From Flavobacterium channae (lineage in GTDB: Bacteria; Bacteroidota; Bacteroidia; Flavobacteriales; Flavobacteriaceae): a stretch of 64,000 bases of DNA. The position numbers and the translations under genes were made by a program. The notes under the pieces are model-generated. The model worked only from the letters and a program-made list of their open reading frames with translations, did not search any database and had not been told where the DNA came from. Within the stretch, counting starts at the first letter, position 1. Every line of letters begins with the position of its first letter. Where the stretch lies: positions 2,232,001 to 2,296,000 of the forward strand of contig NZ_CP089096.1 of assembly GCF_021172165.1 (NCBI RefSeq). Reading direction: 5' to 3'. Shown one piece after another: positions 3 to 5,869 of the stretch.

Positions 3-992
3 GGTGATAAAGTTTACATGTATTTGGATGGATTACAAGTTTTCAATATCAATACAGGACAAAAACTTTGGGAATCGATCTATGAAAACGACATGGATGG
101 TGGCAACGGAGGCATGTTCTCTAACACAACGCAAAAAAAATATTACAGAACAATTGCTGATCCATTATTTACAAACAATGCGGTTTACATTGTAATGTTA
201 GGTGGAAGGGACCGAGCTAAATACGTTCAAAAACATGATTTAGAAAGTGGTAAAATCATGTGGACTTCTGAAAAAATTACAGGTGCTTTTTCTATGCCAA
301 ATATCTACAGATCGGGGGATAAAGTAATTGTTCAAGTTGGAGGAAAAGTACAAGTTCAAGAGTACAGAAAAGAACAACAACCAAATATTTATGGAGGAAC
401 TTACACTTCACTTGTTCCTTACATTTACTGGGATTATAAAGCGCAAAAAAATAGCTTAATAGCAATTGATGACAAAACAGGAACTACTTCATGGCGTTCT
501 GAAAGATTTGACAAACGTATTACAGATTTCATTATTCATGAAAATAAAAATGTTTTTGTTGGAGATGGCGATCAATTCTATTGCTATGACATTGCTTCGG
601 GAAAACAAATTTTTGATGTAAAACATAACGATGCTGGTGTTGGAAAAGCAAAAGACGTAATTGATTTTGGAGAAACTGTGGTAGTTTTATCTGAAAAAGG
701 ATTAGCATCATACAACAAAAAAGATGGTTCAAGAGCTTATGCAACTGAGAAAATTAAAGGAGTAGATTATTTCTATGATGTTAACGGAAACTACTTCTTA
801 CGCGACCAAAGAAACAGCAAAAACATTCTTCATGCAATTGATATGACAAATGGCGACACCAAAGGTTCTGTTCAATCGAAAGGAAAAGGTGGAAGTCCAA
901 AATACGGTGACGGTTTAGACATTACCGAAGATGGAGAATTCATTTTTGCTTTCAAAGGCAAAAAAGTTGAGAAGATAAAAGTGAATAATTAA
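3..992 (+). CDS. PQQ-like beta-propeller repeat protein, 5' truncated
   Basis: The reading frame is open to the left window edge, so the true start lies outside; an internal ATG at 18 is not the start. About 330 residues are visible. They contain recurring beta-propeller blade signatures of the kind N-x-x-TG-x-x-LW (for example INTGQKLWES near the left end and DDKTGTTSWRSE in the middle), typical of PQQ-like/WD-type repeat proteins related to BamB. No enzyme residues are recognised, so it is probably a secreted or envelope binding/scaffold protein; the signal peptide, if any, is out of view. A good terminator follows. The family call is fair; the function is unknown. Confidence 0.75.
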   Translation, partial: GDKVYMYLDGLQVFNINTGQKLWESIYENDMDGGNGGMFSNTTQKKYYRTIADPLFTNNAVYIVMLGGRDRAKYVQKHDLESGKIMWTSEKITGAFSMPNIYRSGDKVIVQVGGKVQVQEYRKEQQPNIYGGTYTSLVPYIYWDYKAQKNSLIAIDDKTGTTSWRSERFDKRITDFIIHENKNVFVGDGDQFYCYDIASGKQIFDVKHNDAGVGKAKDVIDFGETVVVLSEKGLASYNKKDGSRAYATEKIKGVDYFYDVNGNYFLRDQRNSKNILHAIDMTNGDTKGSVQSKGKGGSPKYGDGLDITEDGEFIFAFKGKKVEKIKVNN

Positions 993-1020
993 TTTGTTTT
1001 TTTTATAGTTTGATTACCGA

Positions 1021-1053
1021 AAGCGGATTGTCATTTGGCAATTCGCTTTTTTT
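1021..1053 (+). terminator. Rho-independent terminator after the PQQ-like gene
   Basis: A 10-bp stem (AAGCGGATTG pairing with CAATTCGCTT, one G-T pair) is followed by a run of T. It separates the propeller gene from the two-component module. Confidence 0.8.
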
Positions 1054-1055
1054 AA

Positions 1056-1073
1056 ATACGTCAAATGCCGTAT
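1056..1073 (+). promoter_or_regulatory. Inverted repeat ATACG-N8-CGTAT, putative response-regulator operator
   Basis: Perfect 5-bp inverted arms are separated by 8 bp. The same arms with the same spacing recur at 3762-3779, again 51-52 bp ahead of a tiny membrane-peptide ORF, and a TTTTAC hexamer sits 25 bp after the second arm in both copies. LuxR/NarL-type regulators usually bind short inverted repeats, and one is encoded between the two copies, so this is inferred to be its operator. Confidence 0.55.
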
Positions 1074-1125
1074 AGGAAATAGTGCAGTTTTAAACGAATT
1101 TTACTTAGCAAATAAAAGCTGAGTT

Positions 1126-1254
1126 ATGTCTAAATTATTTCTTTCCATCGAATCAATGAGTCAAAAGAAAGAGTTACATGTAATTCTTTTAAGTTTATTC
1201 GTTTTACTTTGTTTACTATTGAATGTATACAATCTCATTTATGTATTGCATTAA
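1126..1254 (+). CDS. Small single-pass membrane peptide (42 aa)
   Basis: The ORF runs from ATG to TAA and encodes 42 residues: a short polar N-terminus rich in Ser/Lys, a hydrophobic stretch HVILLSLFVLLCLLL, and the tail NVYNLIYVLH. An in-frame ATG at 1156 would give a 32-residue form with the same membrane segment. The tail resembles that of the 37-residue ORF at 3831-3944 (shared pattern L-N-x-Y-N-x-x-Y), and both have the same inverted repeat upstream at nearly equal distance. It precedes the histidine kinase by 60 bp. Function unknown; by analogy with other small membrane proteins controlled by LuxR-type systems it could be a regulated effector or a kinase modulator. Coding status is inferred. 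Confidence 0.55.
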   Translation: MSKLFLSIESMSQKKELHVILLSLFVLLCLLLNVYNLIYVLH

Positions 1255-1314
1255 TTTAAACGTATTTTAAATTTGATTTTATACATTTATGGTACCAATG
1301 ATTCCAATTTTAAA

Positions 1315-3090
1315 ATGAAGAATACTATAACATACCTGTTTGCAATATTTATTTCACAGCTATTTACTTTTAGCTGGAGTCAAACCTATACCACAAAACA
1401 AATAGATTCGGTTTTGAATATGCCATACGATGACATTGTTGCGAATACTTCCAAGTCATTACAACTGTTCAATAAAATTTTATCCGATGCTAAAAAACAA
1501 AACTACAAATTAGGTATTGCCAACAGTTATGATAAAATGGCACTTTGTTATTTTTATCAAAATAAGTATGATTTACAATCCAAATATATTTTCATGGCAA
1601 TTGATTATTTTAATCAATTAAAGCAATACGACAAAGTTGCCTCGCTTTATGGAAGTTATGGTTATCATTTAAAAAAACGCAACTTAGATTCTGGGATTTT
1701 GTACATGCAAAAAGGCTTGAAAATTGGTGAAAAACACAATGCAGAATACGAACTTAGAGCTATTTATGACAATTATGGTGTTTTAAAAGAAATGAAAAAA
1801 GAGTACGATAGTGCTTTTTTGTTCTACAATAAATCGCTGACTTTAAAAGAAAAAGCGAATGATAAAATTGGAATTCCGTATAGTTTGAATAAAATTGGAA
1901 TGCTTCAATTGACTTTAAAACAATTTGCTAAAGCGAAACAAAATTTAGACAAAGCCTATCAAATTCGATTAGAGATTGATGATAAAATTGGAATTGCAGA
2001 AAACCTCAATTTCTATGGTTACTACTATTTTGAAACCAAAGACCATCAAAAATCAATTGAATATTTCAACAAAGCTCTCGATTATAGTAAAACTTACAAT
2101 TACAATTATTTAACCCAAGACAATTATCAAAAATTATCTGAGTTGTACGAATTAAATTCCGATTATAAAACAGCATTGGATAATTTTAAAAACTATACTA
2201 TTTATAAAGACAGCATTTCTAATATCAATCTTAGGATAAAACAAGCAGAACTTGATACCGAGTTTGACACAGTACGAAAAGAAAAGGAAATTTTAACTCA
2301 AAAAGCAGATTTAGCCGTTAAAAATACTTATATTGTAATCATTGTTTCACTCTTAATTTTATCAATAATTGTTGGGTATTTTATGCTAAAAAATCAAAAA
2401 ATTAAAACCCTTCAATTGCAAAAAGAAAACGAATTAAAAGACGCATTACTTAAAATTGAAACTCAAAATCGTTTACAAGAACAAAGGCTACAAATTTCTA
2501 GAGATTTACATGATAATATTGGGGCACAATTAACCTTTATCATTTCATCTTTAGATTCTTTAAAATATGGATTTGCTGGCGAAAACCCTAAATTAGAAGA
2601 TAAATTAAACCGAATTAGTTCATTCACCAAAGAAACCATTTACGAGTTACGCGATACAATTTGGGCAATGAATAAAGAAGAAATTACTATTGAAGATTTA
2701 AAAACAAGAATTTCAAATTTTATCGATAATGCCCAACTTTCTTTAAACGGAATTGAATTCAATTTTAACTTTGACACTAAATCTTTCAAATCGTTTTCTT
2801 CGCGAGATGGAATGAATATTTATCGTTTAATTCAGGAAGCAGTAAATAACGCTATAAAACATGCTAATGCAAGTCAAATAAATGTTAGCTTTAAGGAAGT
2901 TGAAAGAAAGATTAAAATCATCATTCAAGATAATGGAAAAGGTTTTAGTACTGAAACAACTGAAATTGGAAATGGATTAAACTCTATGAAAAAAAGAGCC
3001 AAAGAATTAAATGGAGATTTCACTATTGAAACTAATAAACAAGGAACAAGTATCTATTTAAGTTTGCATAATTTAAACAACATAAATTAG
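1315..3090 (+). CDS. TPR-containing sensor histidine kinase (HisKA_3 type)
   Basis: A 591-residue sensor kinase. The ATG at 1315 is chosen over an upstream TTG at 1273 because it places a signal peptide (MKNTITYLFAIFISQLF) at the N-terminus. A periplasmic region of tetratricopeptide repeats covers about residues 30-320, followed by a membrane helix (YIVIIVSLLILSIIVGYFML) near 340-360 and a coiled linker. The NarL-partner H-box SRDLHDNIGAQ has its phospho-histidine at His399. The GHKL ATPase carries an N-box (EAVNNAIKHA) and G-boxes (DNGKGF, NGLNSMKKRAKEL). The response regulator gene starts 10 bp downstream, so the two are surely a pair. The signal sensed by the TPR domain is unknown. Confidence 0.93.
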   Translation: MKNTITYLFAIFISQLFTFSWSQTYTTKQIDSVLNMPYDDIVANTSKSLQLFNKILSDAKKQNYKLGIANSYDKMALCYFYQNKYDLQSKYIFMAIDYFNQLKQYDKVASLYGSYGYHLKKRNLDSGILYMQKGLKIGEKHNAEYELRAIYDNYGVLKEMKKEYDSAFLFYNKSLTLKEKANDKIGIPYSLNKIGMLQLTLKQFAKAKQNLDKAYQIRLEIDDKIGIAENLNFYGYYYFETKDHQKSIEYFNKALDYSKTYNYNYLTQDNYQKLSELYELNSDYKTALDNFKNYTIYKDSISNINLRIKQAELDTEFDTVRKEKEILTQKADLAVKNTYIVIIVSLLILSIIVGYFMLKNQKIKTLQLQKENELKDALLKIETQNRLQEQRLQISRDLHDNIGAQLTFIISSLDSLKYGFAGENPKLEDKLNRISSFTKETIYELRDTIWAMNKEEITIEDLKTRISNFIDNAQLSLNGIEFNFNFDTKSFKSFSSRDGMNIYRLIQEAVNNAIKHANASQINVSFKEVERKIKIIIQDNGKGFSTETTEIGNGLNSMKKRAKELNGDFTIETNKQGTSIYLSLHNLNNIN

Positions 3091-3100
3091 CCTCATTTCA

Positions 3101-3757
3101 ATGCAAAAAAACATCAAAACAGTTATCGTTGACGACAATACATTCCTAATCAAAGCCATTCAGGAAAAACTATCATTTTTTGACGATATTCAAATAAAAT
3201 TCACGGCTCTTGACGGATCTGATTTAATTACTAAAATAAGTTCAAATCATAATGTTGATGTTATTTTGATGGATATCGAAATGCCTGTTTTAAACGGAAT
3301 TGAAGCCACCGAAATCATAAAAAATAAATATCCTCACATCAAAGTTATCATGCTAACCGTTTTTGATAATGATGAAAATATTTTTAATGCCATAAAAGCT
3401 GGAGCTGATGGCTATTTACTTAAAGAAGTGGATCCAAAAACTCTTTACGAGGGAATTGTTGATACTTTAAATGGTGGTGCTGCAATGAATCCTTCGATTG
3501 CTTTAAAAACATTAAAGCTTCTTAGAAATCCTATCGATTTGAACAATAAAAAAGAAGAAGAAATCATCAAACTTTCTGCTCGAGAGATTGATGTTTTGGA
3601 ACAACTTAGCAAAGGATTAAACTACATAAACATTGCTGAGAATTTGTTTTTATCTCCTTCAACAGTAAGAAAACACATTGAAAATATTTATACAAAACTT
3701 CAAGTTCACAACAAATTAGAAGCGGTTCAAAAAGCCAAGAAAAACAATCTTATTTAA
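3101..3757 (+). CDS. NarL/LuxR-family response regulator
   Basis: 218 residues. The receiver domain (about 1-125) has the acidic pair Asp11-Asp12, the phospho-acceptor Asp58 in VILMDIEMPVLNG, and the switch lysine in LLKEVDP. A linker leads to a C-terminal LuxR helix-turn-helix with the usual landmarks (LSAREIDVLEQLSKGL, then SPSTVRKHIENIYTKL). It is the partner of the preceding TPR kinase. The inverted repeat ATACG-N8-CGTAT found on both sides of the pair (1056-1073 and 3762-3779) is the best candidate for its binding site, which would make the two small membrane peptides its targets. All phosphotransfer residues are intact. Confidence 0.93.
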   Translation: MQKNIKTVIVDDNTFLIKAIQEKLSFFDDIQIKFTALDGSDLITKISSNHNVDVILMDIEMPVLNGIEATEIIKNKYPHIKVIMLTVFDNDENIFNAIKAGADGYLLKEVDPKTLYEGIVDTLNGGAAMNPSIALKTLKLLRNPIDLNNKKEEEIIKLSAREIDVLEQLSKGLNYINIAENLFLSPSTVRKHIENIYTKLQVHNKLEAVQKAKKNNLI

Positions 3758-3761
3758 AAAA

Positions 3762-3779
3762 ATACGGCTTATGTCGTAT
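3762..3779 (+). promoter_or_regulatory. Second copy of inverted repeat ATACG-N8-CGTAT
   Basis: Same arms and spacing as the site at 1056-1073; the central 8 bp differ, which argues for selection on the arms. It lies 5 bp after the response-regulator stop codon and 51 bp before the ATG of the second small peptide. A TTTTAC hexamer is at the same offset as in the first copy. Confidence 0.55.
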
Positions 3780-3830
3780 TGATTTGAGCACAAAACTTTA
3801 TCACTTTTACAGTGTTATTATTTTGATGCA

Positions 3831-3944
3831 ATGAAGACGGATATTTTTACATTTTTAAGAAAAAACAAAATGACCATGATAATTATAATCATAGTCATTC
3901 TATTCTTGTTTTTAAATTGTTATAATATTCTGTATTGCAGCTAA
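3831..3944 (+). CDS. Small single-pass membrane peptide (37 aa)
   Basis: The ORF ATG-TAA encodes 37 residues: a basic N-terminus (MKTDIFTFLRKNK), a strongly hydrophobic run of Ile/Val/Leu/Phe, and the tail LNCYNILYCS. The tail parallels LNVYNLIYVLH of the 42-residue ORF at 1126-1254. An internal start (MTM before the Ile run) is possible. It ends 2 bp before the convergent ABC-F gene. The shared tail, the shared upstream inverted repeat and the matched spacing make a chance ORF unlikely. Predicted topology is N-in with a short periplasmic tail, an inference from the positive-inside rule. Function unknown. Confidence 0.55.
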   Translation: MKTDIFTFLRKNKMTMIIIIIVILFLFLNCYNILYCS

Positions 3945-3946
3945 AA

Positions 3947-5869
3947 TTAACTGTTCAGCATTTCAATTTCTAATTGAACTGTTTCCCAATCTTCTAATAA
4001 TTGTTCTAGTTCTTTTTTCTTCTTTTCATAAGCTGCAAAAAACGTAGCATCTTCAATATGTTTATCATAATTCGCAGCTAAAGCTTTATCATCTGCTTGA
4101 ATAGCTTTTTCTAATTGCTGAATTTGGCTTTCAATTTTACTTAACTTATTTTGAAGCGCTTTCGCCTTCTTTTGATCTTCGTATGAGATACTTTTTACAG
4201 CTTTCGCATTTTGAGATTGAGCATTCACTACAACATCTTTCTTTTCAATTTCACGCATATTCATAGCGTTTTTCTGTTCTAAGAAGAAATTGATATCACC
4301 TAAATATTCTCTGATTTTTTGGTCTTTGAATTCATATACAATATTTGACATTCCTTGCAAGAAATCACGATCGTGAGAAACAAGCAACAATGTTCCTTCA
4401 AATTGCTGTAAAGCGGCTTTTAAAACGTTTTTAGACTTAATATCCAAGTGATTCGTTGGTTCATCCATAACCAAAACATTAATTGGCTGTAAAAGCAATT
4501 TACATAGTGCTAAACGATTTCGTTCTCCTCCCGAAAGCACTTTTACTTTTTTCTCTACATCATCACCACGGAATAAAAAAGCCCCTAACATATCGCGCAC
4601 TTTTGAACGATTGGTATCAGTTGCCGCTTCTAGCATTGTATCTAATAATGTTTTTTCACCATCTAAATACTCCGCTTGATTTTGAGCAAAATATCCCAAT
4701 TGCACATTGTGGCCTAACTTAATCGAACCTTGAAACTCAAATTCATTCACAATGGCTTTCATAAAAGTCGATTTTCCTTGACCATTTTGTCCTACGAATG
4801 CGACTTTACTACCTCTTTCAACTAATAAAGAAATGTCTTTTAAAATAACCTTATCTCCATAAGCCTTTGTAACATGTTCTGCCTCTACAACTACTCTACC
4901 TGGAGTTTGAGAAACCGGAAACGAAATATTCATTACCGAATTATCATCTTCGTCTACTTCAATACGCTCAACTTTATCTAATTTTTTAATTAGCGATTGC
5001 GCCATCGAAGCTTTTGATGCTTTAGCTCTGAATTTCTCGATTAACTTTTCTGTTTCTTCAATTTTCTTAGCCTGATTTTTCTGAGTAGCCAATTGTTTTT
5101 CACGAATTTCCTGACGTAAAACTAAGTATTCAGAATACGGTTTACTGAAATCGTAAGCTTTCCCTAATGAAATTTCGATAGTTCTATTGGTAACATTATC
5201 CAAAAACATTTTATCGTGTGAAACAATTACAACAACTCCTGGAAAATTACGTAAAAACCCTTCTAACCAAATAATACTTTCAATATCCAAGTGGTTAGTA
5301 GGCTCATCCAGAAGTAAAATATCATTCGATTGTAATAATAATTTGGCTAATTCAATACGCATTCTCCAACCTCCAGAAAAAGTATCTGTTTGATTATCGA
5401 AATCTTCTCTTTTAAATCCTAATCCCAAAAGAATTTTTTCGGTATCTCCTACATAATTATATCCACCAAGCACTTCATAATGATGTGTAACATCACTTAA
5501 TTCTTCAATTAAGTCTGAATATTCTTGACTTTCATAATCGGTTCTTGTTACTAATTGATGATTGATTTCATCGATACGGAATTCGGCTTTTTTAATTTCT
5601 TCAAAAGCCATATAAGCTTCTTCTAAAACAGTTCTTCCCTTCACAAAATCAATATCTTGACGAAGAAACCCTATTTTTACTTCTTTTTCAGTTGCAATAG
5701 TTCCGCTATCTGGTTTAAAATCTCCCGCAAGCATTTTCAACATAGTTGATTTTCCCGCACCATTTTTTCCTACAAGACCTACTCTATCTCCAGAACCTAA
5801 ACGAAAAGTTACTTCTTCAAAAAGATAAGTTCCTCCAAAAGAAACCGATAAATTATGTATGTTTAGCAT
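3947..5869 (-). CDS. ABC-F family ATP-binding protein
   Basis: 640 residues with two ABC ATPase domains in one chain and no membrane segment, the ABC-F (Uup/YbiT/EttA) layout. First Walker A GKNGAGKST at 34-42, signature FSGGWRMR and Walker B ILLLDEPTNHLD; second Walker A GQNGQGKST, signature LSGGERNR and Walker B VLVMDEPTNHLD. The charged inter-domain linker (about 235-320) is the segment that reaches into the ribosomal E site in studied members. The last ~75 residues form a coiled coil, as in Uup-like proteins. It probably acts on translating ribosomes; a resistance role cannot be told from sequence. It converges on the small peptide gene and is divergent from the DUF983 gene. Confidence 0.9.
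   Translation of the reverse strand: MLNIHNLSVSFGGTYLFEEVTFRLGSGDRVGLVGKNGAGKSTMLKMLAGDFKPDSGTIATEKEVKIGFLRQDIDFVKGRTVLEEAYMAFEEIKKAEFRIDEINHQLVTRTDYESQEYSDLIEELSDVTHHYEVLGGYNYVGDTEKILLGLGFKREDFDNQTDTFSGGWRMRIELAKLLLQSNDILLLDEPTNHLDIESIIWLEGFLRNFPGVVVIVSHDKMFLDNVTNRTIEISLGKAYDFSKPYSEYLVLRQEIREKQLATQKNQAKKIEETEKLIEKFRAKASKASMAQSLIKKLDKVERIEVDEDDNSVMNISFPVSQTPGRVVVEAEHVTKAYGDKVILKDISLLVERGSKVAFVGQNGQGKSTFMKAIVNEFEFQGSIKLGHNVQLGYFAQNQAEYLDGEKTLLDTMLEAATDTNRSKVRDMLGAFLFRGDDVEKKVKVLSGGERNRLALCKLLLQPINVLVMDEPTNHLDIKSKNVLKAALQQFEGTLLLVSHDRDFLQGMSNIVYEFKDQKIREYLGDINFFLEQKNAMNMREIEKKDVVVNAQSQNAKAVKSISYEDQKKAKALQNKLSKIESQIQQLEKAIQADDKALAANYDKHIEDATFFAAYEKKKKELEQLLEDWETVQLEIEMLNS

What the first reader, a model, noticed from the sequence alone, without database searches (positions are those of the whole stretch)
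1056..3944. Two-component system bracketed by two related tiny membrane peptides with matching operators
Seen: ORFs of 42 and 37 codons flank a TPR kinase/LuxR regulator pair. Both have one hydrophobic span and end in a similar tail (LNVYNLIY and LNCYNILY). Each is preceded by ATACG-N8-CGTAT, with 52 and 51 bp from the second arm to the ATG, and a TTTTAC at the same offset. The spacers and coding parts differ, so this is not a recent duplication. Established: LuxR-type regulators bind inverted repeats, and LiaR-like systems control small membrane proteins. Inference: the regulator drives both peptides, which act at the membrane or feed back on the kinase. I know of no description of this module.
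Basis: partly seen in the sequence, partly recalled or inferred. Interest (0 to 1): 0.72.

Follow-up and report, generated by a model that had tools for sequence, protein, structure and literature searches.

The report
Tiny membrane peptides beside their regulator
In a group of Flavobacterium species, two tiny conserved membrane peptides flank a sensor-regulator gene pair, and both appear to be switched on by that regulator through the same kind of DNA switch that it uses for neighbouring envelope genes.

Summary
Both repeats and both ORFs are present. Close relatives keep peptide 1 with its repeat (9 of 9) and peptide 2 (8 of 8 contigs reaching it; repeat degenerate in one). Codon-level constraint marks both as genes (pN/pS 0.29, 0.26). 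The 'TTTTAC' is the Bacteroidetes -7 box at a fixed offset: A at +23 in 43 of 44 non-redundant repeats, the whole box in 18 of 19 from kinase-fetched loci. The repeat thus spans about -52 to -35, an activator-like position. The composite promoter occurs in 80 of 299 genus genomes and tracks the TPR kinase (both in 68; Fisher 1e-42).

The unit is wider than first read: a third site precedes a secreted-protein operon, and the kinase operon is probably autoregulated. The peptides (8 of 299 genomes) are optional members of a local regulon; one genome keeps peptide and promoter without the adjacent pair. Function is inferred: membrane output or kinase feedback. DNA binding was not tested. A second NarL-type system with tandem sRNA-like units and tiny membrane peptides was noticed in other genera.

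The parts
1020..1053 (+). terminator-like hairpin with T-run, between the PQQ-propeller gene and operator 1
   Evidence: fold -16.1 kcal/mol, z -6.2; the pattern scan listed no terminator in 950-4000
1056..1073 (.). operator 1, ATACG-N8-CGTAT, about -52 to -35 of the inferred start
   Evidence: repeat present before peptide 1 in 9 of 9 close relatives
1096..1103 (+). -7 box GAATTTTA (consensus TAnnTTTG), start inferred near 1108
   Evidence: sequence; fixed offset in 44 sites; numbering from passages of PMC6847099
1126..1254 (+). peptide 1, 42 aa, one hydrophobic span, tail LLLNVYNLIYVLH
   Evidence: pN/pS 0.29 in 10 sequences; single helix 3-41 in AlphaFold2
1268..1275 (+). possible internal promoter -7 box TAAATTTG before the kinase (TTG at 1246-1248, spacer 19)
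   Evidence: box in 10 of 10 loci, TTG in 5 of 10
1315..3090 (+). TPR sensor histidine kinase, 591 aa
   Evidence: Pfam TPR_12, HisKA_3, HATPase_c
3101..3757 (+). NarL/LuxR-type response regulator, 218 aa
   Evidence: Pfam Response_reg, GerE; alignment of 14 regulators
3762..3779 (.). operator 2, ATACG-N8-CGTAT, 4 bases after the regulator's stop
   Evidence: exact in 8 of the 9 loci (window included) that hold peptide 2
3802..3809 (+). -7 box CACTTTTA, start inferred near 3814
   Evidence: sequence
3831..3944 (+). peptide 2, 37 aa, one hydrophobic span, tail LFLNCYNILYCS
   Evidence: pN/pS 0.26 in 8 of the 9 sequences (the 38-aa one of L041 was left out)
18..992 (+). 3' part of the PQQ-propeller gene, last gene of the upstream operon whose operator lies outside the window (G000 2230224-2230241)

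Best explanation
The TPR-kinase/LuxR pair controls a small local regulon. The activated regulator most likely binds as a dimer to ATACG-N8-CGTAT centred near -43.5, taking the place of a -33 element, and recruits RNA polymerase to a TAnnTTTG -7 box. Three such promoters serve this locus. One drives a secreted-protein/PQQ-propeller operon, one drives peptide 1 together with the kinase and regulator (positive autoregulation), and one drives peptide 2 alone. The peptides are real, distantly homologous inner-membrane proteins, inferred N-in/C-out, with an LLNxYNxxY tail at the periplasmic edge. They are made when the system is on. I think their most likely role is to act in the membrane on this family of TPR kinases as feedback (about 0.45), with an envelope output next (about 0.4). 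Supported here by computation: ORFs under protein-level constraint, promoter anatomy, co-occurrence and clustering. Inferred: binding by this regulator, activation rather than repression, topology and peptide function.
For: ORF conservation, offsets and codon constraint. Repeat to -7 box spacing: 44 non-redundant sites, A at +23 in 43, TTT in 43/44/43, purine at +29 in 44; a second look at loci fetched by kinase similarity only gives 18 of 19, on the kinase strand each time. Composite promoter in 80 of 299 genomes versus 3 reversed-control hits. Co-occurrence with the kinase 68/11/12/208, Fisher p 1.3e-42; 95 of 129 listed sites in kinase genomes lie within 10 kb of a listed kinase. 21 of 23 strong peptide-profile hits in the fetched loci have the repeat upstream (most of these hits are also members of the profile). 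Regulators conserved over the helix-turn-helix. The -7 numbering is from PMC6847099 passages.
Against: No binding, expression or translation data; a site at -52 to -35 could in principle also repress. 11 of 79 kinase genomes lack an exact composite promoter and 12 promoter genomes lack a kinase at E 1e-40. Palindromes of the same outline but other inner bases, at the same spacing, sit far from these kinases and must belong to other regulators. The window genome has a second TPR-kinase/LuxR locus with its own site, so cross-regulation is possible. G164 keeps peptide and promoter without the adjacent pair, which speaks against feedback on that kinase only. Only 8 of 79 kinase genomes have a strong peptide match. 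The related FimR bound its promoter in vitro with no significant difference with and without phosphorylation (PMC1974823 passages).
Confidence: 0.72

Rival explanations
1. The peptides are plain envelope outputs of the regulon (small accessory subunits of membrane proteins), with no effect on the kinase.
For: Many other genes right after the promoter have signal-peptide-like or lipoprotein-like starts (signal peptides judged by eye). The peptide with its promoter persists in G164 where the adjacent pair is absent.
Against: In two clades (the window clade; G173 with SM15) a peptide stands between the promoter and the kinase gene, and all 8 genomes with a strong peptide match have a TPR kinase of this family somewhere.
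Confidence: 0.4
2. Another regulator, for example the paralogous LuxR regulator of the second locus, acts at these sites.
For: The second locus has a composite site of the same outline (L174), and 13 relatives of the regulator, that paralog included, are 64-94 % identical to it.
Against: Sites cluster around TPR kinases. The three sites of this locus share ATACGNC-N4-GNCGTAT; the second-locus site keeps only the left half of it.
Confidence: 0.12
3. The repeats are intrinsic terminators of the upstream genes rather than operators.
For: Some relatives have a T-run right after the repeat (44 of 163 distinct composite sequences in the loci then held have at least 5 T near its end); one such site folds at -9.2 kcal/mol.
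Against: At the window sites there is no T-run; site 1 forms the repeat stem at only -2.7 kcal/mol (z 0.06), and the best fold of site 2 is not the repeat stem. A separate terminator-like hairpin lies before site 1. A terminator would not need a -7 box at one fixed offset.
Confidence: 0.03
4. Peptide 1 is a regulatory leader ORF of the kinase operon (attenuation), not a functional protein.
For: It precedes the kinase by 60 bases.
Against: Amino-acid constraint; peptide 2 and the G164 copy are followed by a convergent gene, so they lead nothing; in Rfam only two sub-threshold matches near here, neither in the peptide-kinase interval.
Confidence: 0.04
5. The peptides are membrane-active toxins of the small hydrophobic kind, induced under stress.
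For: Size, one span and positive N-terminus resemble such peptides (recalled).
Against: Specific conserved N-x-Y tail and conservation at one locus over the window clade; no antitoxin gene was noticed, but none was searched for.
Confidence: 0.07

Closest known systems
MgrB with PhoQ/PhoP (Enterobacteria)
   Same: A 47-aa single-span N-in/C-out membrane protein of the regulator's own regulon that inhibits the sensor kinase (PMC8404706, abstract and section on sequence analysis)
   Different: No family match for our peptides; different kinase class (TPR/HisKA_3), regulator (NarL type) and promoter; two peptides rather than one; effect on the kinase unknown here
FimS/FimR of Porphyromonas gingivalis
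   Same: Kinase with a periplasmic TPR sensor (PMC11053733 passages) and a regulator that activates mfa1 by binding its promoter directly (PMC1974823 passages); our kinase scores 72.6 bits to the FimS model
   Different: Far below the FimS cut-off of 600 bits; targets are fimbriae; the terms 'binding site', 'inverted repeat' and 'consensus' have no occurrence in PMC1974823; tiny peptides were not looked for there
LiaRS/VraSR-type systems controlling small membrane proteins (recalled)
   Same: NarL-type regulator and HisKA_3 kinase controlling membrane proteins next door (recalled)
   Different: LiaS model 61.9 bits versus cut-off 450; LiaS has no TPR domain (recalled)
GacA/Rsm tandem sRNAs (recalled), for the second system noticed in passing
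   Same: A NarL-type regulator beside repeated sRNA-like units each with its own palindrome
   Different: Different bacteria and RNA; in six loci Rfam reported tRNA only; tiny membrane peptides attached

Membership tests
TPR-HisKA_3 sensor kinase with NarL/LuxR-type regulator | TPR_12, HisKA_3, HATPase_c above cut-off; Response_reg and GerE above cut-off | tested here: met
FimS (NF053520) | score above curated cut-off 600 bits | tested here: not met
   72.6 bits
LiaS (NF052531) | score above curated cut-off 450 bits | tested here: not met
   61.9 bits
MgrB | match to a known Pfam or NCBIfam family for the peptide | tested here: not met
   no Pfam match of the two window peptides at E 0.001; in NCBIfam at E 1 only TIGR04420 for peptide 2, E 0.18, below its cut-off; among 17 members at E 1 only scattered Pfam matches, best E 0.0076, MgrB not among them
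MgrB-like feedback protein (works like) | inhibits or modulates the sensor kinase of its own regulon | not testable with these tools
   needs genetics
MgrB-like feedback protein (works like) | transcribed from the system's own regulated promoter | tested here: inconclusive
   promoter anatomy and co-occurrence fit; binding not tested
Bacteroidetes sigma-ABfr promoter | -7 box TAnnTTTG close before the transcript | tested here: met
   fixed box at +22 to +29 after the repeat: A 43, TTT 43/44/43, purine 44 of 44; the first T is kept in only 13 of 44 and the last G in 30 of 44; in the two window promoters neither is kept
Class II activator promoter | activator site next to or overlapping the -35/-33 region | tested here: inconclusive
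   inferred -52 to -35 from box numbering; start sites not mapped

The most novel reading that the evidence does not exclude
Flavobacteriaceae NarL-type regulators commonly keep, right beside their own gene and under their own palindrome/-7 promoter, tiny single-span peptides with a conserved Asn in the C-terminal third. In two systems whose peptides show no detectable homology (the TPR-kinase locus here; a NarL-type regulator with tandem sRNA-like units in other genera) these have arisen independently and serve as a dedicated membrane feedback or signalling arm of the regulator.
Probability: 0.25. Interest if true: 0.76.

Novelty: new variant of a known kind. Interest (0 to 1): 0.58.

Why it matters
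It gives a testable operator, regulon and promoter geometry for a class of TPR-kinase/LuxR systems that is found in 79 of 299 sampled genus genomes and for which I found no functional description in the searches listed under tried and rejected. It also adds two related, nearly unannotated membrane peptide types to the short list of small proteins wired to a sensor kinase. The peptide profile found only three proteins in a 5.8-billion-protein collection, so such genes are probably being missed by annotation.

Tried and rejected
Relaxing the composite promoter to 3 mismatches in the own genome gave 137/118 hits against 115/132 for the control, so weaker regulon members cannot be read from sequence. 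In one search, 19 of 299 genomes had a peptide-profile match at E 0.01; I counted the 8 with a match at E 5e-12 or better and dropped the 11 whose best match is E 2e-4 or weaker. A 35-aa look-alike in L053 was not matched by the profile at E 1 and is not claimed. Homology between these peptides and the tiny peptides of the second system was tested and not found. Pfam, NCBIfam, PDB and Rfam gave no family for the peptides or this region. In the regulator tree the peptide label needs 3 changes, but one labelled row is the paralogous regulator of G173; the count was not redone without it. The fifth repeat of the own genome (1551437) lies inside an ORF and lacks the -7 box (not among the composite sites); it was dropped. 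Papers: ten searches (three of them returned no paper at all) showed no title on this module. PMC6847099, PMC1974823 and PMC11053733 were seen as passages, PMC8404706 as abstract and one section, the rest as listings. The co-occurrence test used genome lists copied by hand; its distance test used only places that those outputs listed (63 kinase places typed, promoter list cut short by the tool). In one search, repeats within 80 bases of a locus end were dropped.
Full report
OBSERVATION. The pattern ATACG-N8-CGTAT is found exactly at 1056-1073 and 3762-3779 and nowhere else in the window; 0.04 are expected. The 42-codon and 37-codon ORFs start 52 and 51 bases after the repeats. Between them lie a TPR kinase (TPR_12, HisKA_3, HATPase_c) and a Response_reg/GerE regulator. 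The whole genome has five such repeats and none of the reversed control. Three of the five belong to this locus. The third lies 1.8 kb before the window and precedes a YbjN-domain secreted-type protein, a 123-aa protein and the PQQ propeller whose end is seen at 18-992. A fourth precedes a second TPR-kinase/LuxR locus. The fifth lies inside an ORF and has no -7 box.

THE PEPTIDES ARE GENES. Nine genome records carry the kinase at 86-92 % identity. Peptide 1 is present in all nine with the repeat at +51/52. Peptide 2 is present in the eight whose contig reaches it. With the window that makes nine loci, the repeat being exact in eight and degenerate in L041; in L040, L043 and L046 the frame has an earlier ATG at +6, before the inferred transcript start. 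Substitutions follow codons: variable columns by codon position are 14/3/25 (41 codons) and 12/5/14 (36 codons), and pN/pS is 0.29 (10 sequences) and 0.26 (8 of 9 sequences; the 38-aa one was left out). In 1.24 Mb of fetched loci, 23 distinct frames match the peptide profile at E below 2e-10, and 21 of them have the repeat upstream; the other two are the degenerate site and a contig edge. Most of the 23 are also members of the profile, so this count is not independent. In 299 genus genomes, 8 have a strong match (for G164 the tool noted a stop in the aligned stretch, but the 37-aa frame itself is open). The two peptide families align over their C-terminal halves (hhalign probability 95.9 %, unrelated control 2.0 and 2.5 %). 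AlphaFold2 gives one helix, residues 3-41, mean pLDDT 77.8. Charges at the N-terminus suggest N-in/C-out (inference). No known family matches.

THE PROMOTER. I oriented 66 repeats from 29 loci by the downstream gene and reduced them to 44 that are less than 75 % alike. At fixed offsets after the repeat they show A (+23, 43 of 44), TTT (+26 to +28; 43, 44 and 43 of 44) and A/G (+29, 44 of 44). This is the -7 box TAnnTTTG described for Flavobacterium johnsoniae, with T-12, A-11, T-8 to T-6, G-5 (PMC6847099 passages), although the first T is kept in only 13 of 44 and in neither window promoter. It explains the TTTTAC at the same offset. In 24 of the 25 loci that fetched by kinase similarity, 19 non-redundant repeats (of 41) were found; 18 have the box at exactly +23, each time on the kinase strand. 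By that numbering the repeat spans -52 to -35 and the peptide leaders are 17-18 bases. A terminator-like hairpin stands just before site 1 (the pattern scan did not list it). A possible internal promoter box TAAATTTG stands 13-14 bases after the peptide-1 stop in 10 of 10 loci, with a TTG at the usual place in only 5.

LINK TO THE REGULATOR. The composite pattern occurs exactly in 80 of 299 genus genomes, with 3 reversed-control hits in all. The kinase (E below 1e-40) occurs in 79. Both: 68; kinase only: 11; promoter only: 12; neither: 208; Fisher p 1.3e-42. Of 129 listed promoters in kinase genomes, 95 lie within 10 kb of a listed kinase. Of the other 34, 17 are in just two genomes (G061, G277) and have ATACGT[AG]T-type palindromes. 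With the inner bases fixed (ATACGNCNNNNGNCGTAT), 15 of 20 chosen kinase genomes had matches, mostly near a kinase by my reading, and none had a control hit. In the wider family 126 of 299 genomes have the composite pattern, with 10 control hits by my count of the rows. Fourteen regulators are well conserved over the helix-turn-helix.

THE UNIT IS A LOCAL REGULON. The 31 gene maps show this kind of promoter before secreted-type or lipoprotein-like genes, before kinases and before regulators; L088 has no exact repeat. Families were tested for some members only: YbjN, GSCFA, DUF6252, DUF4230 and FGE-sulfatase above cut-off; a TonB-tail-like (AgmX/PglI) and an OmpA-like match below cut-off. The locus often lies next to an alaS-like and a GSCFA gene (my reading; GSCFA tested once). 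The kinase is preceded directly by the promoter in L048, L049 and L085, and by promoter plus peptide in the window clade and in G173 and SM15, which form one clade in the regulator tree. Peptides are thus optional. In G164 the peptide with its promoter stands alone between a GSCFA-like gene and the ABC-F-like gene, while a paralogous pair lies 25 kb away. That one case favours an output role, or action on a paralogous kinase.

MECHANISM. Best supported: a regulator-activated promoter with the palindrome in place of the -33 element; positive autoregulation of the pair with peptide 1; peptide 2 as a separate transcript. The peptide role is not shown. MgrB (PMC8404706, abstract and one section) shows that a protein of about this size and topology can act on a kinase. 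The P. gingivalis FimS paper (PMC11053733, passages) shows the same kind of periplasmic TPR sensor and suggests a polypeptide ligand. I put feedback on TPR kinases at 0.45 and envelope output at 0.4.

NOVELTY. Membership in FimS or LiaS fails the curated cut-offs. Ten searches of the held library (listed under tried and rejected) showed no description of the module. New variant of a known kind: two-component control of small membrane proteins, with new peptide families and a defined promoter.

SECOND SYSTEM. In other genera of the family (27 loci examined), palindrome/-7 promoters follow one another in tandem; in the larger maps read in detail (L190-L196) they stand right after a NarL-type regulator gene, and most of these maps have neighbours that look like TatD, asparaginase and odhB genes (my reading; one regulator and one neighbour were scanned). 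Of 60 sites, 52 are followed within 20 bases of the box by GCTATTAA, and 27 (in 24 of 27 loci) are followed by a 32-59 aa single-span ORF. Sixteen aligned units from L190-L195 end in a terminator-like hairpin in which 11 of 14 pairs show changes on both sides. In 18 aligned peptides an Asn near the end is invariant. A strict form of the promoter-unit pattern was found in 0 of 150 genus genomes. These peptides are not shown to be homologous to those of the finding.

Noticed in passing
L190-L196, L200-L219 (other Flavobacteriaceae genera): 1-4 ATACG-N8-CGTAT/-7 promoters (after a NarL-type regulator gene in the maps read, L190-L196), most of them driving a conserved sRNA-like unit (GCTATTAATTA..., covarying terminator-like hairpin), then in 24 of 27 loci a tiny single-span peptide ending like ...INILV; Rfam reported only tRNAs in L190-L195.
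   Followed up: partly
G000 2230224-2230780 (L006:4224-4780), outside the window: The first gene of the upstream secreted-protein operon has its usual start (+60) out of frame with the rest in this genome, unlike the nine relatives; an alternative ATG lies before the inferred transcript start. Described only.
   Followed up: partly
G061, G277, G231, G016, G149: Other palindromes of the type ATACGTATWWATACGTAT with the same spacing to a -7 box, scattered over the genome; one site (L199) precedes a 25-aa hydrophobic ORF.
   Followed up: partly
L197:4645-4662 and several sites: ATACGTAATTCATCGTATTGATT... and close variants recur in several genera; in L197 the site lies right after a GSCFA-like gene and before a lipoprotein-like gene.
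   Followed up: no
L081 (G240), between kinase and regulator: A 31-aa hydrophobic ORF (MDTILQHL...IALNIAFIVFY) at +58 after a composite promoter, not matched by the peptide profile.
   Followed up: no
L053:1774-1881: 35-aa hydrophobic ORF with an LLLNIYN tail beside the YbjN-like gene, not matched by the peptide profile.
   Followed up: no
G000 858386-864502: A stretch recurring at 252 bp or multiples of it in most steps (listed), perhaps a long repetitive gene.
   Followed up: no
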